Position numbers and translations under genes: made by a program
The notes under the pieces: model-generated
The model's database searches: none
Told to the model about the DNA's origin: nothing
Seen by the model: only the letters and a program-made list of their open reading frames with translations
Part shown: positions 5,991 to 64,000 of the stretch, piece after piece
How positions within the stretch are numbered: position 1 is the first letter of the stretch
How the letters are laid out: every line of letters begins with the position of its first letter
NCBI GenBank assembly: GCA_026874595.1
Contig: CM049313.1
Location: forward strand, 22,936,008 to 23,000,007
Length of the DNA stretch: 64,000 bases
Origin: Sipunculus nudus
Lineage: Eukaryota > Annelida > Sipuncula > Golfingiida > Sipunculidae
Direction: 5' to 3'

Positions 5991-6314
5991 TGTAGCGTAG
6001 AGTACATTACAATAATACTATTGTCAGTATTGATATATTTGTTTACCTTGTAGGTAGGTCTCTGGTGCAACGAAGTCATCGGTCACCCAGTACAGCTGGT
6101 GCTTCAAGTCACGTAACCAGGGTGACGTGACGTTATTACGTACAAACAGTTATCATTTTTAACCAATCAGTTTATAATATAGTTTCAGAGCGTCAAATTA
6201 TTTCTATGTCAAGTAAAAAACGGACTAATAATAATGTTTTTAATATGGGAATACATAAGGAGTCGAAAAAGATATGTTGGTGGAATAAAAGCCGTTAGTT
6301 TGGACACGTCTACA
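5991..6314 (+). repeat. 5' LTR of the 6-kb gypsy element
   Basis: 324 bp, TG...CA termini. It aligns along its length with 9106-9434, with scattered substitutions and small indels (for example the 3' copy has extra bases in the GTACAGACATTACAGACAG region). The divergence indicates a fairly old insertion. Confidence 0.93.
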
Positions 6315-8685
6315 AATTGGCAACCTGTGCCTGACAAATATCCTTTTCCTCATCTGCATGATTTCCCTACAAATTTGAAAGGAAAATGTGTATTCTCGTA
6401 GTTGGATTTAGTCAGAGCCTACCACCAAATACCAGTCAATACAGATGACGTGCATAAAACAGCCATCACTACACCGTGTTGTTTATTCGAGTTTATACGT
6501 ATGCCTTTCGGACTATATGCATATATCGATGATCTTCTCGTCGCCAGTGAGTCGCATGAGGAACACGTGCAACATTCGCATCTACTGTTCACGCGTTTGT
6601 GTGAATATGGCGTCATCATAAATCCACTCAAGTGAAGGTTCGGAGTGAATCAGTTGCAGTTCTTGGTCATCATGTGGATGAGCATGGTATCAGGCCGCTA
6701 GATGAGAAGGTGAACGCCATTTGAGTTTCCGCCTCCTTTATCTATTCTACAGCTTCGAATATTTTTAGGGTAAGTAAATTTATATCGTCGGTTCACCCAC
6801 AAAGCTGCAGAATTACTGACACCCTTAACCAATCTTTTGCGCGATCAGCCGAACAGGTCAGTGAATTAATCATCATGGAGTTCTATTTGTGACAAAGCTT
6901 TTCTTGCAATCAAGAATGCATAAGCTAATACTACAATGTTAATGATTCCGTCGTCAGATCTGCCTACTCGTCTAATGGTAGACGCTTCAGACTCTGCGAT
7001 AGCCAGTGTTTTACAACTATACTCTGACGGTGAGTGAAAACGACTTGCATTTTACTCACAGAAACTAACGCCGACAGAGACTCGCTATAGCACATTTGGC
7101 AGAGAGTTACCTGCGGTGTATCTGTGTCAAACATTTTCGACATTTCTTGGAAGGCAGACAGTTTACTATCTTTACTGATCATAAGCCTTTAGATAATGAT
7201 TTAAATTCTAAACCAGACAAACATTCTTCGCGGGAGATACGTCAGCTAGATTTTCTATCACAATTTACCACGGACATTCAACACGTCAAAGGACTTAAAA
7301 ATGTGGTAGCAGATACACTTTCGCGCTCGCGGATTCATGCACTACACACCAATGCGTGCATAGATTTTCGCATGATCACCGCTGATCAAGAAAACAACAA
7401 AGAGCTGCAATTTTTGCGGGATTCGTCATCTTCACTTGTATTCAAGCAAGTGCCACTTCCGGTGTCTGACTAATATATTTGGTGGTATATATATATCAAC
7501 AGGTCACGAACGCCCTTTCGTACCGGACAAACACCGTCGCGAAGTGTTCAATTCACTTCATTGTTTGTCTCACCCTGGAATCAGAGCAACTCAGAAATTA
7601 ATCACTACTCGATTCAATTGGCCTGGAATGAATAAAGACATACGCGCATGGGCGAAAACTTGTCTTGCATGCCAGAAAGCCAAAGTGCATAATCACGTAA
7701 AATCACCAATGGGTACTTTCGCTACCCCAGATGCCAGATTTGGACATATACATATAGACCTCGTTGGGGCCCTGCCTCCCTCTAAAGGATATTGTTGTAT
7801 TCTCACCTGCATCGACCGATATACGAGATGGGTGGAAGCTATACTTCTAAGTGACTTTTCGGCAGAAACTGTTGCCAAAGCTTTTATACATCAGTAGATT
7901 TCGAGGTATCGGGTATGGGGTTCCTTCCACCATTACTACAGACAGAGGTAGACAATTTGAATCTACATTGTTTAAGGAACTTACAAATTTGCTGGGATGC
8001 ACGCGCATACGTACCACAGCTTACAATCCCTAGCAAATGGCATTGTTGAACGATTTCATCGCCAGCTTAAATCGGCTATAAAAGCACAACCAGTGCCTAA
8101 CTGCTGGTATGAATACCTGCCTTTGGTGTTGCTTGGTATTCGCACCGCAGTTAAAGAGGATATACATTGCACACCCGCAGAACTTTTTTATGGAACAACG
8201 CTCAAGTAACCTGGTCAAATGGTTTCACCTTTTGAGCCATCTGCTGTACAAGACCAATCTGACCATGTATCTCGTTTGCAACAACACATGGCTAGTATTT
8301 CTTCTGCCATGACACGCAAACAGCACCGACAGTCACATGTGCCCAAAGAACTTTCAAACTGTTCTCATGTTTTTGTGCGCTGTGATATGGTTCGTGAGCC
8401 ATTACAGCCACCAAATGATGGACCATATAAAGTAATACGCAGAACACCCAATTTTTTTTTATCTTTGAAAAACACGGCAGACGAGAATCGATCAGGATTG
8501 ATCGCCTTAAAGTGGCATACACTGAGGACAATGTACCGTCAGCCACTGATTTTACTCAAACCACTAAGTCTAGCCAATCACCGATAACCACAGGTGATGC
8601 TAATCATGACATACACAAAGACATTCCTAAAACCAGAACGACGAAATCATGCAGGCATTTTAGATGGCCTGCGCGATATATGTAA
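6315..8685 (+). pseudogene. gypsy pol remnant: RT, RNase H, integrase
   Basis: The open sense sequence starts immediately after the LTR with an RT segment (PDKYPFPHLHDF, LDLVRAYHQIPV, FEFIRMPFGL). The catalytic YIDDLL follows directly after MPFGL, so roughly 20 residues usually found between them are missing. RNase H remnants follow (LMVDASDSAIASVLQ, FTDHKPL, DTLSRS, up to about 7350). Integrase has an HHCC zinc-binding segment (HPGIRATQKL...CLACQKAK, about 7565-7680), catalytic D in HIDLVG, D in TITTDRG and E in NGIVERFHRQ. The C-terminal part ends near WPARYM at about 8685. Multiple stops and frameshifts (for example at 6399, 6633, 7471, 7898) make it non-functional. Confidence 0.9.
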
Positions 8686-8731
8686 TATTATTTAAAGAGT
8701 TCGTGTATACTGCATATTAATGCATAAATAA

Positions 8732-9005
8732 GGCCAAAAAAAATAAAAGGTATGGTTCTCAGGCACCGCCCGCATCAATTTTAATCCCCCGCATCAAAAA
8801 TTTTTATTTTGATTTTCAAAAGAAACTTACCGATTTCGAGCTGCAGCCGCTCGAACATTTCTTTCAAGAAGATAAATCCATTCCATTTCCTTTGTTATGT
8901 TGTGCTTTTACTTGTTTAGCGAAATAAATATGTTATTATCATGCTTTTATCATGATTTCTGAAAAAAAAAGTGCCTGAGAACCATACCTTTTTTTTATTT
9001 TGGCC
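8732..9005. mobile_element. MITE with ~35-bp terminal inverted repeats, PIF/Harbinger-like
   Basis: The left end GGCCAAAAAAAATAAAAGGT continues with ATGGTTCTCAGGCAC. The right end is its near-perfect reverse complement (8971-9005). A TAA triplet directly flanks both ends (8729-8731 and 9006-9008). A 3-bp TWA target duplication with GGCC-type termini is the PIF/Harbinger pattern. No ORF is present in the 274 bp, so it is non-autonomous. It inserted between pol and the 3' LTR of the gypsy element, hence later than that element. Confidence 0.88.
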
Positions 9006-9085
9006 TAAGGTATTATATTTTTTTTGTCTCACTACAGACGATCTGTTCTCGATCGCTGTTTGCATATTTAATTTTTCAGCGATCT

Positions 9086-9105
9086 AGGAGGGGGGGGGGG
9101 CTATT
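9086..9105 (+). other. Polypurine tract of the 6-kb gypsy element
   Basis: An AGGAG plus G-run lies just before the 3' LTR, separated from it by CTATT. This is the expected position of the plus-strand priming site. The long G homopolymer may have expanded after insertion. Confidence 0.7.
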
Positions 9106-9434
9106 TGTAAGGTAGAGTACATTACAATAATACTAATGTCAGTATTGATATATATGTTTACCTTGTAGGTAGGTCTCTGGGTGCAACGTCATCGGTCACC
9201 CAATACAGCTGGTGCTTCAAGTCACGTAACCTGGGCGACGTGACGTTATTTCGTACAGACATTACAGACAGTTATCATTTTACACCAAACAGTTTATAAA
9301 ATAGTTTCAAGACGTCGTTTTATTTTTATGTCAAGTAAAAAAACGGACTAATAATGTTTGTAATATGGGAATAGATATGGAGTCGGAAAAGATATGTTGG
9401 TGGAATAAAAGCCGTTAGTTTGAACACGTCTACA
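9106..9434 (+). repeat. 3' LTR of the 6-kb gypsy element
   Basis: 329 bp, TGTAAGG...CTACA, partner of 5991-6314. It is followed at once by the target duplicate CCGT. Confidence 0.93.
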
Positions 9435-10820
9435 CCGTCGACAAGGCCCGAGGGCGTCGCTCGTTTTTGCAAAGTTCATGAGCACCATCTGGGGATTGTT
9501 TGTCATGAATATTCATGAGCCGACCAATGAGAGCGCCGTCGATCTGTCGCGTGACGCGCGCGTTAGTCTGTTTTGGGCTTTACTTAAATCTATGAGGAAG
9601 GATCTTTGACACAATTGCAACCAGCTGAGGAGCATCAGCGTACAAAGATTGAAGTATCCAAAATATGTTTTTGAAATACTTTACACTTTTTACTCAATGA
9701 CTACTTAAACAGCACAAATAATTATCTTCCATAAAATATAAGAATTGTTTCACATTATTGTTAGTGCATCTGTTGTTGTACTGATCTACATTTCTGTATT
9801 TTAACATAATTAATCAATAGTAAAATAACATTTTATTCTTACTTTAATTTTACTTATGATTAATAGTTACCCAGACTTCCATTACAAACATTTTCTATCT
9901 GCACTTATTGCTAAATTTCATGTGTTTAACTAAAATTTTATCAATGCATTTTTTAGGCTTTGGAAACAGCAGCAATTTCTCAGATTCATTGGTATGAACA
10001 GAAAAGAGGATGCCTCATATATCCTCTTAGGTTTGAATGAGAAAGACGAGTCCCACGAGTATCATTGCACAAAATCTCTCTTACACCACAGACATGGGAC
10101 ACAAAATGAGAAAGAGCTTCTTGAGGTCACGTGCACCAATTGAGATTGTTCTACAAGGTTGTGTACATATTTTTATCATAAGCGTGTTTTAGAAAGTATC
10201 ACTATTCTTATAAATGCAACCTCATAATCGCGTCTACTGTGTAGTGAAAGTATCGTGTCACATGGCAAGCGGGCCGTTTAGCCTGCTATGATTAACACAA
10301 GCCAAGCAAATCTCATGGCTTGCTTTACATTTCATTGGGCTATAACTGATTTGTCCCACATGCCCCGCCTCCTTGGTCGAAGGTCACGCGTGTCATTTTT
10401 CTTTCTTTTTTGGGGGGGCTACGCACCAGTTCTATTCCATATTTGGAAAGTAGTGCAACTTCACTTGCATGGTCACTTTTCATGACCCTGTGATGCAAGC
10501 AGATTTGAACGTACAGTTAGAACAAAGGAAAATACGCCGCATGTGGGACAATATTATATTACATTTCTGTAATCAGAACAAAATCTGTCACAAAATATCC
10601 AGTACTAATCCAGCTTCTCCAGCACAATAGTCTGCAGACATGATCATCATATGACCGACACGATTCTCACCTGTTGGTAACACCATCTGTGGTAACCCGA
10701 TTACTTTATTTAAATAAAAATGTTTTTTCTCAGTTTTCCTTAAGCAACAAAATTGATTAAACCTAGCTTTCTATCTTGTTCACTTTCGCTGTCTACCTCC
10801 ACCATCAGATTCCTTTCTAA
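9435..10820. other. Intergenic region with a CpG-rich patch at its left end
   Basis: The first ~130 bp (9435-9565) are rich in CpG (GTCGCTCG, GTCGCGTGACGCGCGCG) and contain CCAATGAG, which contrasts with the AT-rich surroundings. This could be a promoter remnant, but I see no attached gene. The rest is AT-rich. A 60-codon open frame near 9960-10140 begins after a TTTTTTAG acceptor-like site but shows no recognisable domain. Confidence 0.35.
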
Positions 10821-11056
10821 TGTAGTAGTTCATATCTTACTCTACTACAAAACTTACTCCTGAGAATGTCGGGTAAGTATCCTCAGCGTGGGAAGTAGTA
10901 GTTGTCAGTCCTTCCCAGGGTACGATTCAATCAAGCCATGCGGTATTCGTCTTCCGAGGGGTCAAGGTCGGGGTCGTCTCCACCAAAACCCGGAGGTAGC
11001 TCTCGATCATCCCGGAGAACGCTGTCTACTGAGGCAGTCAACCAAAACCTACCACA
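10821..11056 (-). repeat. 3' LTR of TatD element copy 1
   Basis: 236 bp, on the plus strand TGTAGTAGTTC...CTACCACA. Nearly identical to 18878-19113, with differences at the GAAGTAGTAG, ATTCGTC, GAACGCT and AAACCT positions. Confidence 0.95.
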
Positions 11057-11073
11057 CTCTCCCCCCTTTTCTG
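11057..11073 (-). other. Polypurine tract of TatD element copy 1
   Basis: Read on the minus strand this is CAGAAAAGGGGGGAGAG directly before the 3' LTR, the standard plus-strand primer position. The second TatD element has an equivalent purine run at the same place (about 62678-62692). Confidence 0.8.
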
Positions 11074-11475
11074 AAATGCGTCCTACTGTAGCAGAAACTT
11101 GAAAACAGACTATTTATAAGAAAACACGTAAGGGGAACAAATATTTATGATAATGGTAGGAGACATTCTATAAACGGTGCATTCCAACTGCTGGCACCTC
11201 AAGTTTCATTATTATGACAACAGCAAATAAATTAAACAGTGACACGCTGACACAACTGAACGTTAACTTAAGGCTATGAAATAGGAACTGCATCAACAAT
11301 AGTATAACAGGCTGAACAGGCCACTTGCTTAAATATCAAGGAAAGCTCTTGCAAAAAACAGAAACTACATAATCCAATAATGACATAGGGATAGCCTTCT
11401 TTGCCGCCAACTATGTCAATTGGAATAAAAGACCTTATATAGTATAAAAAGAACTGCTAATAAGTAAACACCCTT
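11074..11475 (-). other. 3' untranslated segment of TatD element copy 1
   Basis: About 400 bp between the TatD stop and the polypurine tract contain no open frame of note. Short matches to the equivalent region of the second element are visible (CTATTTA near 11110 and a GAACGTTAACTTAAGG segment near 11261 compared with CATTAACTTGAACCCC near 62808), supporting common descent of the 3' end. Confidence 0.5.
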
Positions 11476-12924
11476 TCAAAAATGGCCATACAGACTTGAG
11501 GCATTGCTGTTGCACTGGGCAATAAGCTCTGAGACTGAACATGAGCGAAGTGAGGCAACCTTAGAAGCTGTTGGTGAGATGTCCCAAGGAGAAGCTGCCA
11601 GATAAGGGCAGTCCGATTCGAGCAGGATTCGGTTCTCAGGTACATGCATAACCGCCGATTGTGTAGACTGCTTCCTGAAAATTGTCCCCGTAAAACCAAA
11701 ATAACAATTTGGCAAGGCTCTTGCCCACTCTTGTAATTCTAACTCATCCCCCGAAAAGCAATGGCGGTGAATTTTGGCACTAGCTAGTTCCTTGTCCTTG
11801 ATGAGCTGCAGTGTGCGTCCTGCAGCCATCCCTGTCCCTGGGTCACGACAATGTAGGATCAATACGGGCACGTTATGGTGTTGTTTAAATAGGTCAAACG
11901 CCTTTCCCAAGAATTCTGTTTGTGCTGTTTGGGACTCCTTGCTGGTTTTAGTGTGCTCTTATCCGAGCTCCCCAAATGCAATACATTCTGGTGTTGCTAG
12001 CAACTCGTCCAATTCCCTGATTCTCACATCAACTTCGGATACCTTTCTTATGCAACGCGGATGTAATCCAAATGCGACTTTGACCCTTGGGTCCTGGGCG
12101 ACTTGCCGGTAAGGTGCCCAATGACTGGGATATACAAAATTTGCCACAGCACCTAGCAACTTTATATGTGAGGACTTGGGTATGTATTCGGACAGTGAAT
12201 TGAGCCTTTCGTGTTTGAAGAGCATATCAAGGTGGCAATGGGAGTCAATCAATGCCAAGTCCTTATTGAGCAAGCAAACCTGTTGCTGAACTGACTCTGG
12301 TAAATCCTGTAGGATCCTAAGCAAAGCTTCCGGGTGCAATATACAAGCAACAGCATTAGGGGGGCGCGTATCTAAGGTCTCATATGTCACCCAAGCATGT
12401 GTCTCTGACAGCTCCCGCAGCCTTTTTTCCTCACTGTTGGAAAATCCACCTGAACCTTGTCCCTCAACATACTTTTTCTCTTCTTTCACCCAATCAAGTA
12501 AGCCAGCTGGTGTGCCCTGACCGGTCTCCTCTGCGAGTAGCACTATTAGTTCTTTGGCCCACTTGGTCCATTCTTTCTCCGCTCCTGGTTTTAAGTTTCC
12601 TTCACCCCCACGGGAGTGAAACTTGTCAATGGCATTTTGACACCCCTCCTGCTGCCGACAGGTCCAGCATGCTGTCTCAATCTTTAACCACCAGGGCAAG
12701 TGATTACAGATAACATGTCTCCCAAGATGTTTGGTAACAGTCTTGCATAATGGACAGGTCTTTGAGCGCCATCTTGGCCTTTTGGGGACCTGGCCATGAC
12801 TACTGTGAGAATCTTGAGTCTGGTTCACTAGAATGTTTCTCATGTCTGTCATTTCTGACGGATTATCAGCTGGTGAATCTTCTTCATAGTCAGGAACAAA
12901 TGCTGCTTCTGACAAGGGGTCCAT
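11476..12924 (-). pseudogene. Zinc-finger/TatD-family metallohydrolase ORF of the LTR element (one stop codon)
   Basis: 483 codons including the stop in one frame from ATG at 12924, broken only by TAA at codon 322. TatD proteins are metal-dependent hydrolases with a TIM-barrel fold; several are DNA exonucleases. The family's ligand motifs are all visible: HxH in LIDSHCHLDML (H229, H231), E319 in IAFGELG, H358 in LILHCRD, H388 in HRHCFSG and D438 in LLESDCPYL. The N-terminal part carries a C2H2-like cluster (C57, C60, H66, H70, H75) and a second Cys group (C86, C89, C95), then a linker to about residue 222. The gene lies 136 bp after the integrase stop, inside the LTRs. A TTTCATTTAGTCTTTAG sequence just upstream resembles a 3' splice site. 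The stop replaces what is a Leu codon in the second copy, so this copy is probably dead. Role in the element is unknown. Confidence 0.9.
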
Positions 12925-12960
12925 TGTCTGGAACCTAAAGACTAAATGAAACAGTTAGCC
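12925..12960 (-). promoter_or_regulatory. Candidate 3' splice site before the TatD start codon
   Basis: On the minus strand the sequence AACTGTTTCATTTAGTCTTTAG precedes GTTCCAGACA and the ATG at 12924. It has a pyrimidine-leaning tract ending in AG. A GTAAGT donor-like sequence lies in the 5' LTR (minus strand, 18914-18909). Together these could produce a spliced subgenomic mRNA for TatD, as env is expressed in retroviruses. This is inference from motifs only. Confidence 0.35.
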
Positions 12961-13059
12961 CTTGGCCTCTTTAAACATCTCTTCTTAACTAAGTTAGTTT
13001 TGAATTTGCAACTCAGGCAGCTCCATAATCTAGTTGACTTAAGTAGGTTACTCCATCAA

Positions 13060-15872
13060 TCATTCTGTATAATCCTTCAGGTACTTTGGTTTTCGCACCT
13101 TCCTCCCTTTTGACGTTCTCGTTAAAGGCTTGGAGTCATCCAGTTGTTCATTTGCTGCCTGTGTTGTCGTATCTGGGATGTCATTTGTGTTCTGCTGAGT
13201 TAGTTCTGGTGCTTGGAAAGAACTGATGTCCGTCTCTGCAACGCTTTCTGATGGGCCGGGAGAGCTTGGTTCAGCATGGCCGTCCACAGCAATCCCGGTG
13301 TCATCAGACTCTACTGCAGCCCATAGACGATTCCTTGCTCGCCGCAACAGGATAGGCACATTTCTATCATCACATAACTTTAAGTTATCATGATGGATGA
13401 ACTTTTCTCTCTTTCTAGTCAGGATTTTGTACTCTGGGTGCCTACTTTGTGTTACCAGAAACGGTCCCTTCCAAATCACCTGTAACTTTGGGCTCTGTCG
13501 CCTTTTGGGAGCTTTGTTCATGAGATACACCAAGTCACCTGGTTCGAACAGCTCTACCTTTGCCCTGAGATCGTAATCTTTCTTTTGGTAAGATAGACTG
13601 GCCTTCAAATGCTTCCTGACTTGCTGTTGAGTTTTCTCCAAGCGATTCCTCAGATCTTGGACACATTTGTTGGGCGTGACACGTTGGGTAACCTGTTTGG
13701 CTGTCCCCATCACTAAGTCTGCTGGTAATATGACCTCGCGCCCTAACATGATTTCATTGGGTGTGTAACCGGTGGTCCTATTAACCGTAGAATGGAGAGC
13801 CATGGTCAGCAGAGGTAAGTCCCTATCCCACGTGCGAATGTCATTCTCCAGGTAGCAACGGATCATCTGCAGGACTGTCCGATTCTGACGTTCGACCTGC
13901 CCATTAGAAGCAGGATGATACGGCGTTGTCCTGGTTTTAGCTATCCCTAGAACCTGACACAAGGTAGAGAACAAGTTGGACTCGAAGTTTTGTCCTTGGT
14001 CAGAGTGGATTTCTATCGGACATCCAAAGGTAGTAAAAAACCCATCACAAGCCTTTCTGCAACAACACCAGCTGATTGTTCCGGGATAGCAAAACATTCT
14101 AGCCACTTCGAAAACTGGTCAAAGACCATGAGTATATATCTGTTTCCATTTGTACTCTCTGTGAATGGCCCGAGGATGTCTATATGGATTCTCTCAATTG
14201 GGAATCCGGCTTGATACATCCCCAGTCCTGCCTTTGCTTTCTTTGGTGGTTTTTTGTTCCTACTACAAGTGTCTCAAGTTTTGACGTATGATTCAGCATC
14301 TCTGGCCATATGATACCAGTGGAAAGAGCTCTGGAGACGATGGAGAGTTTTGTCCCGTCCTAAATGCCCAGATATCTTCAAGTCATGACAATATTCTAAT
14401 ACCTCTCTTCGGAGTACAGCCGGCACAACTAGGCATATACGGAATGCAGGGTCTGTCTCCTTGGCTTCCTTGAGATACAACACTTCATCTTTCATCTCCA
14501 ACTGCTGTCTCTGTAGCCATAGGTGTTTCGTTGCTGGACTTTGGATGAACAACTCACTTTGGACCGGGTCCTTACCCTTTAACCATGACAGTACGGGGCC
14601 TATGTCTGGATCTTCCCTTTGCAACTTGCTGATGGTTGAATTGGAGTAAATGCTTGCCCAGTTACTGATTTCAGCTCCGTCACTCAGAGTAGTTTCACCA
14701 CTAGAATCATCTTCAGGTCCTAGTTCATCGTTGGAAGAACCTGTAACTGAGGTTTGTGCCGGTGGAAGCACACAGGCCGCCTCAGCATTCCCCTCTGCCA
14801 GGCCCAGTCCAACTGACCTGACACAAAGTGGCTCTGGTGAGATGATTTCTACTAACTCCACTGCTGACCCAATCGGCTGGTCGCGTCTAACTGATATGTT
14901 TCTGTTGGTGTCATTTATGGCTTCCAAATATCCAAGCTGATTGGTCACAGCGTTTGCAAGCAGTAAGCCATTCACATCACCCTTGGGTTCTATAATTGGT
15001 AGCAACGACCTTGTGTTTGGTGGAAAAACTGCTGATTTCTCTGCAACAACCGTAGACACTACACAAGACATGTCCTTTGAATTCTTTCTCAAGGAACCCG
15101 TGATGCAGTCATCAAGTATATTTATTTTGCAATTTGCAAAATCAACGACGCACCTATTGTCAATCAGAAAGTCCAAACCAAGCAGGATTGGGTCGGTTAC
15201 CTTGGCTACATAGGCGTCACATGAATAGATGTTCGAACCCAGTTTCATATTTAGTCGTGAAACCTTCTGGGCAGGTATGCATGCATCCGGTTCGCCTATC
15301 CCGCGAAGTACAGCAGTACCGACTACTTCAATTTCTCCTGGTAGGGAATCTCGTAATACCTCACTGATGACTGTGACCTGTGCTGCACTGTCCACTATGG
15401 CATTCGTCGCTATACCATTAATTTGCACTGGGACAGCAAAACTTAGACCTTCAGTCTTTCGGATGAGAGCTTCTTGTTCAGAATGCTTGACATTAATATT
15501 CTCACCTTCTGTTAACTCTCTATCTTGGGAATCCGTACCTATGAGCTCAACAAGCTTCTTAAGAGTATCCCCACCAAATTGCTTTGTCGACTGGCCCGTT
15601 TCATAAGAAATGGCATCTGCATGACTAACCTCCGTGATGGAATGTGGTGTAGCTCTTGAGGATATGGGCACTGAGGCTGATGAACCAATGTCAGATGTCA
15701 AAGTATATCCATGAGTGCTATCTTTGACCGAGTCATTAATCATTTGCACTTGTTGTTGATTTATTGTTAATGGTGTTGTTGTTAATGGTGGACCCCCCTC
15801 GGGTTTAGGTTGGCCTCGATCAGTAAACGGGGTGGACCTTTGGCCTGCAGAGTCACCCCTTATTCTTTTAAA
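13060..15872 (-). pseudogene. pol of TatD element copy 1: protease joined to integrase, RT/RNase H missing
   Basis: The frame opens at the frameshift site (15872) and continues to a TGA at 14274. It carries a retropepsin with VDSAAQVT (active Asp about 120 residues after Met 15749) and ILLGLDFL. After an acidic linker it passes straight into the integrase N-terminus (STISKLQREDPDIG, then H..H of the HHCC finger). About 550-600 residues of RT and RNase H normally found between them are absent, yet the frame stays open. The TGA at 14274 falls at the first Cys of the HHCC finger. The catalytic core follows: D in HIDILGPF, D in EIHSDQGQ and E in NGQVERQN, with exactly 35 residues between the last two. 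A one-base loss in a T run near 14035 shifts the frame. The C-terminus ends at 13060. Confidence 0.9.
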
Positions 15873-17785
15873 GAATCACCTTCTGACGAATCTGGCTTTT
15901 TTGTGCCAAAAGGGCAATCTCTCTGGAAGTGCCCTTTCTGGTGACACCGGAAACATGATAAGCCTTGGGGAGATCTGGGCGGTGTACCTGGGGACTTTGA
16001 TCTCGGAGGTGTTCTAGACCTCAAGAGCTGTCTCATCATAATTTCCAGGTCTTCCATCCGCTGACTTATCTCTTTTTGGAAGTTTCGTTGTGTTGCCGAC
16101 TCCTTGGCCACTGCTGATGACCTCACATGATAATCAGACTCACCTTCCGGGTGGAGATCAGCATTGGCGAAACTGAGCTTTTTTATAGTGGCGTTACCTT
16201 GAAGTTTTCCATAAACTGCATTCCGATTATTGACTGCATTTGTAACATAACTAATGGCTTTGTGGACTCTTTTGGGGTTTTTGTCCATTGCCACCGCCGC
16301 TGCGCGCTTGTCCGCACAACCCTTCAGAAAGTGTTCAACACTTATTTGCTCAACCGTCTCCTCAAGAGCTCCTGGGAAACCATCCATTACTAAGAAATTG
16401 ATTCTCTGTCAAAATTCTTCCAGGGACTCACTGGCTTCCTGCTTTACATAGGGGAGACTCCGCCGTACGGTTATTGGCGCATCCTTCACTCAAAACCTTC
16501 TAGAGAGCTTTTCCTTAAGCATTCCATAATCGTTCCCTATGTGGAGTCCTCTCACATACTCAAGGGCCTTTCCGCTCAATGAATCTAGTAGCCTCTCGGC
16601 TGTCTTATGACTTGACCAATCATATCGACCAGCGTAGCGTTCCAGCTGATAAATAAAATCATGCCAAGACTTATCACCCGAAAATATCGGCAGTTTTGGT
16701 GGTAGGGGGCTTCTGCACCTAGACTGTCGTCCTCGATGGTACCTTTCCGGTGATGAAGAGCGGTCACTATCAGAACCACCGAAACTTTGTCTTTTATTGT
16801 AGCTCTGTCTGCTAGTCTGTCGTCCTCTCGAACGGCTACGAGAGACTGAACCTGTCCCCCGGTGCCTCCTATTCTTTCTGTATTTATGTTCCAAGTCATC
16901 ATCAGCGAGGAAACCATGTATGTGACCATCTCTAAATGTATCCCTCCGAGGGCCTGTAACTGTAGAGTGAGATCCCCTTTCTTCACTTCGACAAGGTTGT
17001 CCATATTTCACATGACTAGGCTTGTCAAATCTTTCTGGGGAACTGGAGTAGGGGGAGCCACACCGGTTTCTGGTTTGATTATAACCTGGGGCAAAATACT
17101 GGTACTCTGGTGTGATAGGCTTCCTTTCATAGCTGCCATATGGAGGTCGCCTGAGGTGATCACGTTCCCGAGAATATGGTCTGTGAGATATTTCACTGAC
17201 GGATCTATGTGGCTCAATGGGTCCAAAAGCAGATTGGAATTGATGACAATTTCTGTTTTCAGCAGTTGGCCCAGCTCGCTCTGCGACAAACAGAGTCTGA
17301 TTCTGCCTGTCATGTACATTTCCTATAGCTTGATTAGCTTGTGCTGGCTCATCTGACCTCTGTTGGTAAATGCTGCTTTTTGGCAAAGCAGACATAATTT
17401 GATCAATTTTGTCATCAGGGTTCGGTTTTGGCATTTGACTGGCAGTCACAGTGCTGCCCCTATCCCATATACCAGCAGCATAAGAGTGCATACCATTTGA
17501 TCCAGAGCCATTATCTTTGTACAGATTGGGTTGAAAGACAGAGCTCTCTGACTGAAGACCTCTATGTCCCGGAGTATGCACAGGATTTATAATGATGGAA
17601 CCATCATGTATCAATTTTGCCCAGTCAGAAGCAGGGTAGTTGGTAACCTTCTCCAGGTCATGAATGCCAAAATCAGGTTTGACTTTGCGTATTGTAACAA
17701 TCGCTTGTGCGGAGTCACAGGTAAGAACAAATGGCAGCCAAGAAACAAGTTCTGGGACAGTTGCAGTGCACAAGTTCAATGCCAT
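15860..17785 (-). pseudogene. gag of TatD element copy 1 (two in-frame stops)
   Basis: One frame of about 640 codons from ATG at 17785 to TAA at 15860, interrupted by TGA at 16490 and TGA about 34 codons later near 16388. The first ~340 residues are low complexity and rich in Arg/Ser (RSRSRGR). A capsid-type region follows (LPIFSGDKSWHDFIYQLE, then LLDSLSGKALEYV), which is the pattern of retrotransposon Gag proteins. Near the C-terminus is one CCHC zinc knuckle, CFRCHQKGHFQRDC. It ends one codon after a -1 slippery heptamer. Gag would package the element RNA into particles; the stops make this copy defective. Confidence 0.88.
15866..15872 (-). promoter_or_regulatory. Programmed -1 frameshift heptamer T TTA AAA at the gag-pol junction
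   Basis: In the gag frame the minus strand reads TCT TTA AAA GAA TAA. The heptamer TTTAAAA fits X XXY YYZ and lies one codon before the gag stop. Shifting back one base enters the pol frame, which is open from 15872 through protease to 14274. Position, phase and motif all agree with the retroviral gag-pol strategy. I did not fold the downstream RNA for a stimulatory structure. Confidence 0.75.
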
Positions 17786-18860
17786 GATGGGTGAATAAAT
17801 TATCTGATATACTATTGATAATTAGAAAAAGAGTTTGATATCTCAAAGCATGCACAGTGCGGCTTAATAGCATGGGTAGATCTGCAGAGCTAACAGGCTG
17901 TTAAGCCGCAAGCAATGGGCAAAGTAATTTCAAAAAGTATAATAAACTGCAAATATTAATTGTTCACAGTTGTCAATTGGATTAACTACACAAATAACAA
18001 TGTAGTTATCAATTGCAGTGAACAAACAATGCAAATCTGGACCACAATTATAATGTAGGAGATGTTAAAAATACTGTAAGTGTAGTCAGAGTTGCCTATG
18101 GTCACATTGTAAAACTTTAAATAAACATCAGGGGCATGTGCATACACTTGCACATACACAGATATAATGATAATACACTAAGAAAGCTAGTGTATGAAGT
18201 CCTAAGCAACAACAAATTTTATGCTGTCATTTATCATGTCTATCTCTCTCTCTCTCTCTCTCTCTTTAAATTAGAAATTATTCAAATGTACTCAGTCCCA
18301 GCAACTAACTTGAAAAAAAAAATATCCAAGGATGTTCCCATATACAAGTGGGAAGATGAACAAAATATTCAATAAGCAGGTTTCTATGGGCCAGCAAAAT
18401 AGTCCTTGGTAGGAATTATACAAAGAAATTTGATTTCACTAAATGATGGATAATGCAAGAGAGACTGAGACCTTATAAATTATAGAATAAAAGGACTGTT
18501 GTGAGGTAGGCCGAATTGAGTATGGACGAATTTATCAGTAATCAAAGTCGTCACGGCTTCAGCACGCCACGAGTGACGTCAGATTCAATCGTGACCTACT
18601 ACAATCTGAATAGGGCTAAATGACACAGGTAAAATACTGACAACCTGTCAAGAATATATACAGGCTGCCGGAAAAATAACACAGAAGAACCTGTGTCTGC
18701 TGCTGCAGCAAGAATTTGCAACAGACACCGCGGACCACTTGGGGTAGGCCGAGATATAAAGGATGTTGCGAGCTGGTTACCGGCCGGATTCGGCCAGTAC
18801 GAACGAAATTGACAACCAAATGTTTATCGACCTCGTTTATAAAATTTAAGCCCGCCCTAT
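17786..18860 (-). other. Long 5' leader of TatD element copy 1
   Basis: About 1.1 kb between the primer-binding site and the gag start. It has no recognisable domain. It includes a TC microsatellite at 18240-18266. The part nearest the LTR (about 18520-18860) is less AT-rich than the rest and could hold packaging or transcription signals, but nothing specific can be named. Confidence 0.55.
18240..18266. repeat. (TC)n microsatellite
   Basis: About 13 consecutive TC dinucleotides within the leader of the LTR element. Confidence 0.9.
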
Positions 18861-18875
18861 CTAGACTCGCCGCCA
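18861..18875 (-). other. Candidate primer-binding site of TatD element copy 1
   Basis: Reading the minus strand out of the 5' LTR, the sequence after a 2-base gap is TGGCGGCGAGTCTAG. It begins with TGG, the complement of the tRNA 3'-CCA end, at the expected position. I do not assign the tRNA isotype. Confidence 0.65.
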
Positions 18876-18877
18876 GA

Positions 18878-19113
18878 TGTAGTAGTTCATATCTTACTCT
18901 ACTACAAAACTTACTCCTGAGAATGTCGGGTAAGTATCCTCAGCGTGGGAAGAAATAGTTGTCAGTCCTTCCCAGGGTACGATTCAATCAAGCCATGCGG
19001 TATTCTTCTTCCGAGGGGTCAAGGTCGGGGTCGTCTCCACCAAAACCCGGAGGTAGCTCTCGATCATCCCGGAGACCGCTGTCTACTGAGGCAGTCAACC
19101 AAAATCTACCACA
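18878..19113 (-). repeat. 5' LTR of TatD element copy 1
   Basis: 236 bp with TG...CA termini, about 2% different from its partner at 10821-11056. Because LTRs are identical at insertion, this suggests a fairly young insertion, in spite of the broken ORFs. Confidence 0.95.
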
Positions 19114-19315
19114 CTAATATGACTGACAGGGGGACAGTCGGATCGGGAGACTTTGCTTGATCTCCGAGTTTGAATCTGAGCCCGTCTTCTTATACGGAGT
19201 CGTAAGGGTTCTCTTTTTTAATTATATGCAAATTAAGCAACCTGGTTTGAATGGCGTGATGGCCGCAAGGAACGCCTTACAGGCCGAATTACTTGCTTTA
19301 AGAACTGATACTCCT

Positions 19316-19620: not shown

Positions 19621-19677
19621 ACTACTTGTTGACGCGATTAATTCACCGGCATGAAAACATTGAAACCGTTGGCAACC

Positions 19678-19850
19678 CGGGTTCGATCACCGGCGTGGCT
19701 ATATGAGAGTGCGTGGCAGTTACCCGTCAAAGGCTGCTGGTTTTCTCCCGTTTCCTCCGCCTATAAACATTACCGAACAGCACAACCTGAGCCATCAAGA
19801 GGCCTCGATTAATTATAAAAACTCTTTGTACAATCCGTTTAATTAGTCGA
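19678..19850 (+). mobile_element. tRNA-derived SINE (family B), 5'-truncated
   Basis: Starts within the B box (AACCCGGGTTCGATCACCGG) and follows the family B body (GTGGCTATATGAGAGTG, GGTTTTCTCCCG, CTTTGTACAATCCG). It lies tail-to-tail with the next SINE. Confidence 0.65.
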
Positions 19851-19912: not shown

Positions 19913-20125
19913 CATGGATTGTACAACAAGTTATAATAACTAATACGAGGCACTCTCCATGGCTCGGATGTTGGCGCTCGGTAGTTGGTAAGGGTGGAGG
20001 AGCCGGAGAAAACCACCGACCTCGGACGGGCAACTACAACCCATTCTCATAGCCACGCCTGGAATCGAACCCGGGTCTCCAGCGGAGAAGGCCGAGCATT
20101 TTACCACTCAGCTGTCAAGGTCCCT
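19913..20125 (-). mobile_element. tRNA-derived SINE (family B), best-preserved copy
   Basis: On the minus strand the head reads CAGCTGAGTGGTAAAATGCT, an A-box-like start, then CCCGGGTTCGATTCC, a strong B box. The body follows to CATCCGAGCCATGGAGAGTG and an end containing TTGTACAATCC. It is the reference for the decayed copies at 1786, 4316 and 19678. Confidence 0.82.
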
Positions 20126-62879: not shown

Positions 62880-63145
62880 AGAACAGCTGTATGGGGACGG
62901 TGGAACCGCTGAGGCTTGCCTCGCAGACATCAGTAAAACCCCGTTAACACCCCGTACAGCTACTGAACCTCCAAGGTTACACTTAATCATCTAAGCATAT
63001 AACCCTAGCAAAACAAATTACTACATGAATAAACCACAGGGTATATGGACCTGCCACTGGCCAATATTATGATGAAAACAGCTGTACAGAGACAATTAGA
63101 GAGGTCACCGAGGGCTTGCCTCGCAGACATCAGCTGTACCCTCCG
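62880..63145. repeat. Direct repeat pair in the 3' region of TatD element copy 2
   Basis: AACAGCTGTA...GGCTTGCCTCGCAGACATCAG...AGCT occurs at about 62881-62960 and again at about 63068-63145. The second unit overlaps the end of the TatD ORF, so the 3' tail of the gene has been duplicated into the untranslated region. Confidence 0.7.
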
Positions 63146-64000
63146 TATAGCTCCTGAGCATTAGAATTACACTGATGTAAGAATGTCTCTGCGGGTAGCC
63201 CCCTCATCTGGGCCAGATGATCAATGAGGGACCTGAGATGCCAAGGTGAGTCTGCTAAATACGGACAATCCGACTCCACCAAGATTTTGTCTAAAGGTAC
63301 CTCCGAGACGGCTGCTGCAGTTTCCTGGCTTCTGAACACTGTTGACGTAATGCCAAAATAGCAATTTGGAAGGTGCTTAACTCACAATTCAAGCTCCCTC
63401 TTTCCCCCGAGAAACAGTGACGATGAATTTTGTGATTCTTCAAACCTGCATCTAGCAGCATGGTCAATGTCTGCCTAGCAGCCTCTCCCCCACCATAGTC
63501 ACTACAATGAAGAATTAACACTCTAGACCTGAAGGCTTCTGCTGTAATAAACTGAAGGCTTCCCATAGAAACTGAGTTTGCAGCCTCTGTTCTCTTCCAC
63601 TGGTGTGGGTAAATTCTAGGCCTATTTCTCCGAACGCCACACAAGTAGGAGAGGCCAGAAGCTGCTTTAAGGTTGTGAATTGCTGGGCGACTACAGTTTG
63701 AGACTTAGTTAAACGGGAATGAATGCTAAATGAGCATTTTACTCGTCTATCCTCAGCTATGACCGTATGGTGATTCCAATGAGATGGATACACAAAGTTG
63801 CTGACCAGGCCAGCTACACGACATCCCTGCGTCTCAATAGAGGCTTCATAATCTACTAATGATATATTTCCTGTCCTGCTAAGCAATACGTCCAAATGGC
63901 AATGGGCATCAATAATACCTGCAGATCCCAGGGATTCCTCGTCTAAAACAGGTGTAAACTCAGAGATACAGGACCTAACATCCTCAGGAAGAGTGGCCAT
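63130..64000 (-). pseudogene. TatD-family ORF of LTR element copy 2 (frameshifted, partial)
   Basis: The first frame runs in from the right edge to 63515 and shows IIDAHCHLDVLL (HxH) and CVAFGEIGLE (Glu ligand). After a one-base shift near 63530 the second frame gives LILHCSD and HRHCFSG. After another shift near 63400, and a TGA where copy 1 has Trp, the third frame has LVESDCPYLADS and ends at 63130. So the five ligand motifs of TatD are all present, in order and at the same spacing as copy 1. It extends beyond the window, so the ATG at the very edge need not be the start; the zinc-finger part is not in view. Inactive as it stands. Confidence 0.85.

What the first reader, a model, noticed from the sequence alone, without database searches (positions are those of the whole stretch)
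10821..19113. A Ty3/gypsy LTR retrotransposon that carries a TatD-family metallohydrolase gene after integrase
Seen: 236-bp LTRs with CTAA target duplicates enclose gag, protease and integrase, and a 482-residue zinc-finger/TatD ORF between integrase and the polypurine tract. All five TatD metal-ligand motifs are intact. Known: gypsy elements may carry extra ORFs such as env at this position; TatD proteins are metal-dependent hydrolases, several with DNase activity. I do not know of a described LTR retrotransposon lineage with a TatD gene. Inference: the element captured the gene and uses it, perhaps on its cDNA or host DNA.
Basis: partly seen in the sequence, partly recalled or inferred. Interest (0 to 1): 0.88.

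Follow-up and report, generated by a model that had tools for sequence, protein, structure and literature searches.

The report
Jumping gene lineage carrying TatD nuclease
A whole lineage of retrovirus-like jumping genes in this animal genome carries, as its usual third gene, an enzyme of the TatD nuclease family joined to a zinc-binding front part of its own, which suggests the enzyme helps the element, although the particular copy in this window is dead.

Summary
The finding is real, but the copy in the window is less intact than described. Window 10821-19113 is a minus-strand Ty3/gypsy element with 236-bp LTRs (5 mismatches) and a CTAA target duplication. It carries gag, protease and integrase and, before the polypurine tract, a zinc-domain/TatD gene. 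This copy is dead: TatD has an in-frame stop (11959-11961), gag and integrase frames are broken, and RT/RNase H is missing (its nearest relative found, L019, still has it). TatD follows the RT in 50 of 59 elements of one RT clade, but in 0 of 50 RTs below 56% identity. Some copies have identical LTRs and open gag, pol and TatD frames. The TatDs form one clade (100/98) with proteins from other sources, apart from the intron-bearing host TATDN2-like gene. So TatD is a standing third gene of a gypsy lineage; nine literature searches listed no such lineage. Its biochemical role is inferred, not shown, and six TatD-deleted copies show it is not strictly needed in cis.

The parts
10817..10820 (.). 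target-site duplication, left (CTAA on + strand)
10821..11056 (-). 3' LTR (236 bp)
11057..11070 (-). polypurine tract (AAAAGGGGGGAGAG on the element strand)
11476..12924 (-). zinc-domain/TatD gene (third gene), interrupted by an in-frame TAA at 11959-11961 in this copy
12262..12924 (-). N-terminal zinc-binding plus helical domain of the TatD protein (no Pfam match above cut-off, no PDB fold match)
11479..12258 (-). TatD (PF01026) domain
12935..12955 (-). splice-acceptor-like tract 10 nt before the TatD start codon (inferred)
   Evidence: second-best acceptor-like site of 642 scored in the element
13060..14433 (-). integrase core and C-terminal part, broken frames (stop near 14272, frame change near 14040)
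14274..15749 (-). protease plus integrase H2C2 frame; the RT/RNase H that lies between them in L019 is missing here
15860..16387 (-). gag C-terminal part with CCHC zinc knuckle
16490..17785 (-). gag N-terminal frame (broken from the knuckle part)
18860..18877 (-). primer-binding-site-like stretch (TCTGGCGGCGAG...; primer tRNA not assigned)
18878..19113 (-). 5' LTR (236 bp)
19114..19117 (.). target-site duplication, right (CTAA on + strand)

Best explanation
The window holds a dead, internally deleted copy of a Ty3/gypsy lineage whose usual make-up is LTR - gag - pol (PR-RT-RH-IN) - zinc-domain/TatD - PPT - LTR (shown). TatD is a long-kept third gene of one RT clade, acquired once and passed on with pol (association shown; single gain inferred). 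It is read as its own frame, probably from a spliced subgenomic RNA, since acceptor-like tracts sit before its start codon in most families (inferred). The protein is a metal-dependent nuclease with an added zinc/helical domain (fold and ligands shown by sequence and model; activity inferred). Most likely it trims or removes RNA or 3' ends in the RNA:DNA and cDNA intermediates of the element, as cellular TatD enzymes do on ssDNA, AP sites and R-loops (inferred, about 0.4 by itself). It can be supplied in trans, because TatD-deleted copies have spread (inferred).
For: LTR family: all 6 LTR pairs that I read out of 14 LTR matches hold a call-11 TatD match just inside the 3' LTR. RT clade: 50 of 59 RTs at 66% identity or more have TatD downstream (49 within 4.5 kb, 1 at 10 kb inside an LTR pair), 1 of 2 at 56-65%, 0 of 50 below 56% (Fisher p 4e-22 with the two middle rows left out). 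Gene order: of 20 loci, 19 have gag and protease and 18 integrase-core matches upstream of TatD. 10 of 20 show LTR pairs, 97.3-100% identical over the aligned stretch, five of them 100%, all 10 with a 4-bp duplication by my reading. L014 has three open frames of 689, 1472 and 505 codons and a full pol by Pfam. Of 124 chromosomal TatD matches, 32 lie in stop-free frames of 450 aa or more (counted). All six ligand positions are kept in 17 of 21 rows, although the family representatives are only 30-39% identical to L014's protein. Between families pS is 0.73-0.86 against pN 0.43-0.46, 7 pairs. One clade 100/98. A pol (P0066) and a TatD (P0002) from another source have the same longest-contig length, 557,787. 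Acceptor-like sites, 8 families combined: p about 9e-5 with one chosen row per family, 0.0013 with the worst scored row of each.
Against: Activity, expression and splicing were not measured. The acceptor is weak in the L014 family (0.13-0.30), in L012 (0.36) and absent in L027 (0.96). Donors rank first in L020 and L026 and third in L011, but are weak in the window copy and L019. Of the 9 clade members without a TatD match, all now looked at: five have TatD cut out (L034-L036 one shared junction; L038 and L041 others), L042 a larger deletion, L039 keeps the front domain only, the match of L037 ends before TatD, and L040 shows no TatD in 4.15 kb. TatD is therefore dispensable in cis. Within-family dN/dS is 0.26-0.56 in 9 pairs but 0.79 and 0.95 in two pairs with L011; three more pairs have 1-3 nonsynonymous and no synonymous changes. 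Pol was not run as a yardstick. Four of 21 rows lost a ligand.
Confidence: 0.6

Rival explanations
1. TatD is a passive passenger: captured once, copied along by an amplifying element, and not under selection for the element.
For: Six TatD-deleted copies, three sharing one junction and so probably spread after the loss. Some within-family dN/dS values are near 1 (0.79 and 0.95 in pairs with L011). Bdelloid enzymatic ORF3s were reported without significant departures from neutrality (PMC5408684, passages).
Against: Eight family representatives, 30-39% identical to L014's protein, keep the ligand and zinc positions in most rows, and synonymous change between families is near saturation while pN is 0.43-0.46. 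32 of 124 chromosomal matches are in long stop-free frames. Eleven proteins of other sources keep the same two-domain make-up.
Confidence: 0.15
2. The enzyme acts on the host rather than on the element's own intermediates: it counters a nucleic-acid-based defence or DNA-damage response in germ cells.
For: In the tree the host TATDN2-like gene lies on the element side of a 99/95 branch against bacterial TatDs, TATDN1 and TATDN3 (unrooted). Tatdn2 guards germ cells against R-loops in medaka (PMC12709183, passages). The TatD protein differs more between families than RT (30-39% against 67-75% identity to L014), as arms-race genes may.
Against: No direct evidence; a fast rate also fits loose constraint. 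No target is known.
Confidence: 0.2
3. An LTR element inserted beside, or caught by chance, an ordinary host TatD gene; the association is local.
For: An ordinary TATDN2-like host gene in separate exon-like pieces does exist (L029).
Against: Recurrence at the same place in 6 of 6 LTR pairs and 50 of 59 clade members. The host gene lies outside the element clade at 100/98. Each of the 10 fetched paired copies has its own 4-bp duplication.
Confidence: 0.01
4. TatD takes the place of an envelope gene and serves transfer between cells.
For: It has env's position and perhaps env's spliced expression.
Against: The protein is a TatD-type hydrolase by profile and fold. Membrane segments were not tested by a dedicated program.
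Confidence: 0.03

Closest known systems
Bdelloid rotifer LTR retrotransposons (Vesta, Juno) with enzymatic ORF3 (DEDDy exonuclease, GDSL esterase); PMC5408684, passages read
   Same: An extra enzymatic gene after pol, catalytic residues kept; one of the types is a 3' nuclease; the paper says ORF3s of LTR elements are typically expressed from spliced messages.
   Different: Different fold (TatD barrel against DEDDy), different host. There the extra ORF3s are family-specific and the DEDDy one was gained at least twice; here one gene marks an RT clade. The zinc/helical domain here has no counterpart found.
Orchid Ty3/gypsy elements with an m6A RNA demethylase domain (PMC9289625; title and start of abstract only)
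   Same: Ty3/gypsy elements that gained an enzyme domain.
   Different: Demethylase, in plants.
Ty3/gypsy elements with env as third gene (recalled)
   Same: Position of the third gene and perhaps splicing.
   Different: Enzyme instead of fusion glycoprotein.
Cellular TATDN2 (R-loop RNase; PMC12709183, passages) and TATDN1/TATDN3 (AP endonuclease and 3' exonuclease; PMC10085689, passages)
   Same: PF01026 domain, HxH type (Group II, like TATDN2 and TATDN3), ligands kept, IHRHCF motif shared with the host TATDN2-like gene L029.
   Different: The LTR-borne proteins form their own clade (100/98), are read from one uninterrupted frame where open, and carry a zinc/helical front domain that I saw only in proteins of this kind.

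Membership tests
Ty3/gypsy LTR retrotransposon | Paired LTRs, short target duplication, PBS and PPT | tested here: met
   LTRs 236 bp, 4-bp duplication, PPT; a PBS-like stretch is present, its tRNA not assigned.
Ty3/gypsy LTR retrotransposon | pol order PR-RT-RH-IN | tested here: met
   for L014 and L021. In the window copy RT/RH is missing, so the copy itself shows only PR and IN.
Ty3/gypsy LTR retrotransposon | RT placed within Ty3/gypsy by an RT tree with named reference lineages | not tested
   Only Pfam and database matches were seen, such as a Pol named from 'transposon 17.6'; no named clade was assigned.
TatD (PF01026) hydrolase | PF01026 above its cut-off and metal ligands | tested here: met
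   95.7-150.7 bits in 7 proteins with open frames; 30.2 and 83.7 bits for the two pieces of the window copy; cut-off 27. Ligands in 17 of 21 rows (positions from recalled motifs).
TatD (PF01026) hydrolase | Barrel fold like solved TatDs | tested here: met
   model of P0001 (a database relative, not the window copy), best match 6l25, E 8.9e-13, TMt 0.83.
TatD (PF01026) hydrolase | Nuclease activity | not testable with these tools
   Needs a bench assay.
TATDN2 orthologue | Groups inside the TATDN2 clade | tested here: inconclusive
   Own clade at 100/98 with the host TATDN2-like gene outside. That gene stands on the element side of a 99/95 branch, but its nearest rows by path are bacterial, and the tree is unrooted. 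One search, with a recalled human TATDN2, agrees (99/97) but held a misframed window row.
Retroviral env-type third gene | Fusion glycoprotein with membrane segments | tested here: not met
   Profile and fold show a TatD hydrolase; membrane segments were not predicted by a dedicated tool.
Retroviral env-type third gene | Expressed from a spliced subgenomic RNA | tested here: inconclusive
   Acceptor-like tracts, combined p 9e-5 (chosen rows) to 0.0013 (worst rows) over 8 families. Donors are strong in L020, L026 and L011, weak in the window copy and L019. No RNA data.

The most novel reading that the evidence does not exclude
A Ty3/gypsy lineage took over a TATDN2-like R-loop nuclease, gave it a zinc/helical targeting domain seen in no other kind of protein here, and uses it in germ cells as a second hybrid-processing enzyme beside its own RNase H (or to blunt the host's response to hybrids). 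It can be shared in trans, so TatD-less and TatD-only derivatives live off the full elements.
Probability: 0.25. Interest if true: 0.85.

Novelty: new variant of a known kind. Interest (0 to 1): 0.7.

Why it matters
LTR elements with extra enzymes are known, but what the enzymes do is unsolved. Here one nuclease marks a multi-family lineage with very recent copies, and natural deletions of that gene exist, so its contribution can be tested by comparison. It also warns that some 'TATDN2' or TatD annotations in animal genomes may be transposon genes: a giant squid genome paper lists a 'TATDN2' among transposon-like genes in the legend on its Hox cluster (PMC6962438, passage; lead only). The zinc/helical domain matched no Pfam family above its cut-off and no solved structure.

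Tried and rejected
Local host gene next to an LTR: rejected. A retrotransposed spliced copy: L010 (LTR-TatD-LTR, 2.6 kb) looked like one, but its junction lies inside the integrase end of its relatives, so it is an internal deletion. The TatD deletion shared by L034-L036 was checked for GT-AG ends; it has a short repeat at the junction instead. Relatives in viral contigs and genome contigs with the N-terminal alignment: 40 and 81 pattern matches, none confirmed. N-terminal domain without TatD, among proteins of 117-373 aa: only P0062 and P0063, truncated members of the P0003 kind, P0062 still with part of TatD. N-terminal fold in PDB: nothing below E 2.9. A whole-genome search with the N-terminal domain did not complete. 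The tree had my misframed window row; replaced, in which I also left out P0012, P0055 and the recalled TATDN2. P0011 and P0013 were in neither tree. Literature: searches list no paper whose title or abstract start describes TatD in an LTR element. I looked at passages of PMC6962438, PMC5408686 and PMC6238403 (no TatD in the last) without finding one; other listed papers were not opened for this.
Full report
What is in the window. On the minus strand, 10821-19113 is an LTR element: two 236-bp LTRs with 5 mismatches, TG..CA ends and a TTAG (CTAA) target duplication, a PBS-like stretch and a polypurine tract. Pfam finds a CCHC knuckle, an aspartic protease, the integrase zinc domain, the integrase core (below its cut-off) and TatD in two pieces. 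The nearest relative found, L019 (TatD pieces 94.7 and 98.1% identical), has 1.75 kb at that place, with the RT in it; its own TatD frame also has a stop. The window copy is a dead, deleted derivative.

Is TatD part of the family? The window's LTR has 14 matches in the 1.43-Gb genome. I read them as six pairs, one solo LTR and one weak partial match. All six pairs, the window's included, contain a TatD match near the 3' LTR; in C14, C5 and C9 only part of the domain matches, and in C17 it comes in two pieces. The PF01026 search scored 150 of 171 candidates and gave 138 matches, 124 on contigs C1-C17 (109 loci) and 14 on small contigs that look bacterial (my judgement, not examined). I fetched 20 of the chromosomal loci. 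In them, 19 of 20 have gag and protease and 18 of 20 integrase-core matches upstream of TatD in order; 10 of 20 show LTR pairs within the 10 kb taken, and each of the 10 has a 4-bp duplication by my reading.

Is it a lineage trait? The RT of L014 was searched in the genome (111 of 9,919 first-look candidates scored) and set against the TatD matches. Of 59 RTs at 66% identity or more, 49 have TatD within 4.5 kb downstream on the same strand, one at 10 kb inside an LTR pair, and 9 none. At 56-65% it is 1 of 2. Below 56% it is 0 of 50. Because only the best RTs were scored, more distant lineages are not covered. I looked at all nine exceptions. L034-L036 share one deletion that removes nearly all of TatD; L038 and L041 have other TatD deletions; L042 has a larger one from integrase to the end of TatD; L039 keeps the front domain (72% to L021) without the barrel; the match of L037 ends before TatD; L040 (RT 67%) shows integrase but no TatD in 4.15 kb. 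TatD-less derivatives have therefore spread, and conversely L010 has lost nearly all but TatD.

Recency and integrity. L013, L014, L016, L017 and L018 have LTRs identical over the aligned 206-210 bp. L014 has open frames of 689 (gag), 1472 (pol) and 505 (TatD) codons, and pol shows PR, RT, RNase H and IN. 32 of the 124 chromosomal TatD matches lie in stop-free frames of 450 aa or more (counted).

The protein. It has a zinc/helical front domain and a TatD domain. All six TatD ligand positions are kept in 17 of 21 rows; L011, L024, L025 and L026 each lost one. The six front Cys/His positions are kept in 19 of 21 (not L025, L026). Both assignments follow motifs as recalled. An AlphaFold model of P0001, from another source, has mean pLDDT 80.8; its barrel matches solved TatDs (6l25, E 8.9e-13; TATDN3 2y1h, 1.1e-11). 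The front domain of the window copy, modelled apart (81.9), matches nothing solved (best E 2.9) and no Pfam family above its cut-off; the nearest is a sub-threshold TRAF6 zinc finger in L027 (E 0.0032). Among predicted viral structures only one protein, of Yasminevirus, matched at E below 0.001.

Relatives elsewhere. A profile search (7,991 candidates scored, a capped list) gave 61 proteins. P0001-P0010 and P0012 show the front domain too; P0011 and P0013 are TatD pieces of the same kind; the other 48 look like cellular, mostly bacterial, TatDs (few are named). P0002 (TatD) and P0066 (pol, RT 77%) have the same longest-contig length, 557,787, so they probably lie on one contig; this could not be opened. 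The tree of 29 rows puts 8 element TatDs and 10 database proteins in one clade at 100/98 and the window copy next to P0001 (100/99), with the intron-bearing host TATDN2-like gene L029, TATDN1, TATDN3 and bacterial TatDs outside. L029 stands on the element side of a 99/95 branch, but the tree is unrooted and its nearest rows by path are bacterial. An earlier tree with a recalled human TATDN2 agreed (99/97) but held a misframed row of mine.

Selection. Between families synonymous differences are near saturation (pS 0.73-0.86) while pN is 0.43-0.46 in 7 pairs, which speaks for long constraint. Within families dN/dS is 0.26-0.56 in 9 pairs with synonymous changes and 0.79 and 0.95 in two pairs with L011; three pairs have 1-3 nonsynonymous and no synonymous changes, and one pair has no change. 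I did not run gag or pol as a yardstick.

Expression. TatD has its own frame; in L014 its ATG lies 70 nt after the pol stop. The best acceptor-like site within 120 nt upstream ranks high in most families (window 2nd of 642, L009 2nd of 836, L010 and L023 1st), is weaker in the L014 family and in L012, and is not convincing in L027; L011, L019 and L025 were not scored. Eight families combined give p about 9e-5 with one chosen row each, 0.0013 with the worst row each; the weights are recalled, not trained on this genome. Donor-like sites in the leader rank first in L020 and L026, third in L011, 13th in L014, and are weak in the window copy and L019. Splicing is likely but unproven.

How it works. 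Cellular TATDN1 and TATDN3 are 3' exonucleases, mainly on ssDNA, and AP endonucleases (PMC10085689, passages). TATDN2 is reported as an RNase that resolves R-loops and is needed in medaka germ cells (PMC12709183, passages). An LTR element passes through RNA:DNA hybrids, primer remnants and flapped cDNA (general knowledge). I therefore think it most likely that the enzyme processes such intermediates, in cis or in trans. Action on a host defence is the main rival.

What is known. The nearest precedent is the bdelloid LTR elements with DEDDy exonuclease or esterase ORF3 (PMC5408684, passages). Searches of an open-licence library list no TatD-bearing LTR element; only listings were seen, apart from the papers named with passages. 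Subscription papers and repeat databases were not available. I rate it a new variant of a known kind.

Noticed in passing
window 63108-64000 (-) and G000:C8:23002622-23003689: A second TatD of the same lineage at the right edge of the window, in broken frames, with an RT of the clade (82%) about 2.6 kb beyond the window end: a second element of the lineage in this neighbourhood.
   Followed up: partly
window 6279-8461 (+): Another RT and integrase of a different gypsy-type lineage (28% and 22% identity to L014), without a TatD match nearby.
   Followed up: no
window 19666-19702 and 20049-20085: Inverted pair of 37-nt stretches with a tRNA-like GGTTCGAT box (box recalled), perhaps two SINE copies in opposite orientation.
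   Followed up: no
L034, L035, L036, L038, L041, L042: TatD-deleted copies of the L014 family: three share one junction with a short repeat, the others differ: natural loss-of-TatD derivatives, at least one of which spread.
   Followed up: yes
L040: A clade member (RT 67%, integrase 60%) with no TatD found in the 4.15 kb after its RT: truncated, interrupted, or a real TatD-less branch.
   Followed up: partly
L010 (oriented about 7070-9655): LTR-TatD-LTR miniature of 2.6 kb with its own target duplication TGCT, nearly everything from the PBS to the integrase end removed.
   Followed up: partly
G000 contigs C61, C62, C64, C65, C66, C69, C72, C74, C75, C89: 14 TatD matches on small contigs, several with identical scores; they look like bacterial contigs (symbionts or contaminants) in the animal assembly.
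   Followed up: no
PMC6962438 (giant squid genome): A legend lists a 'putative deoxyribonuclease TATDN2' beside transposon-like genes in the Hox cluster; it could be an element of this kind.
   Followed up: no
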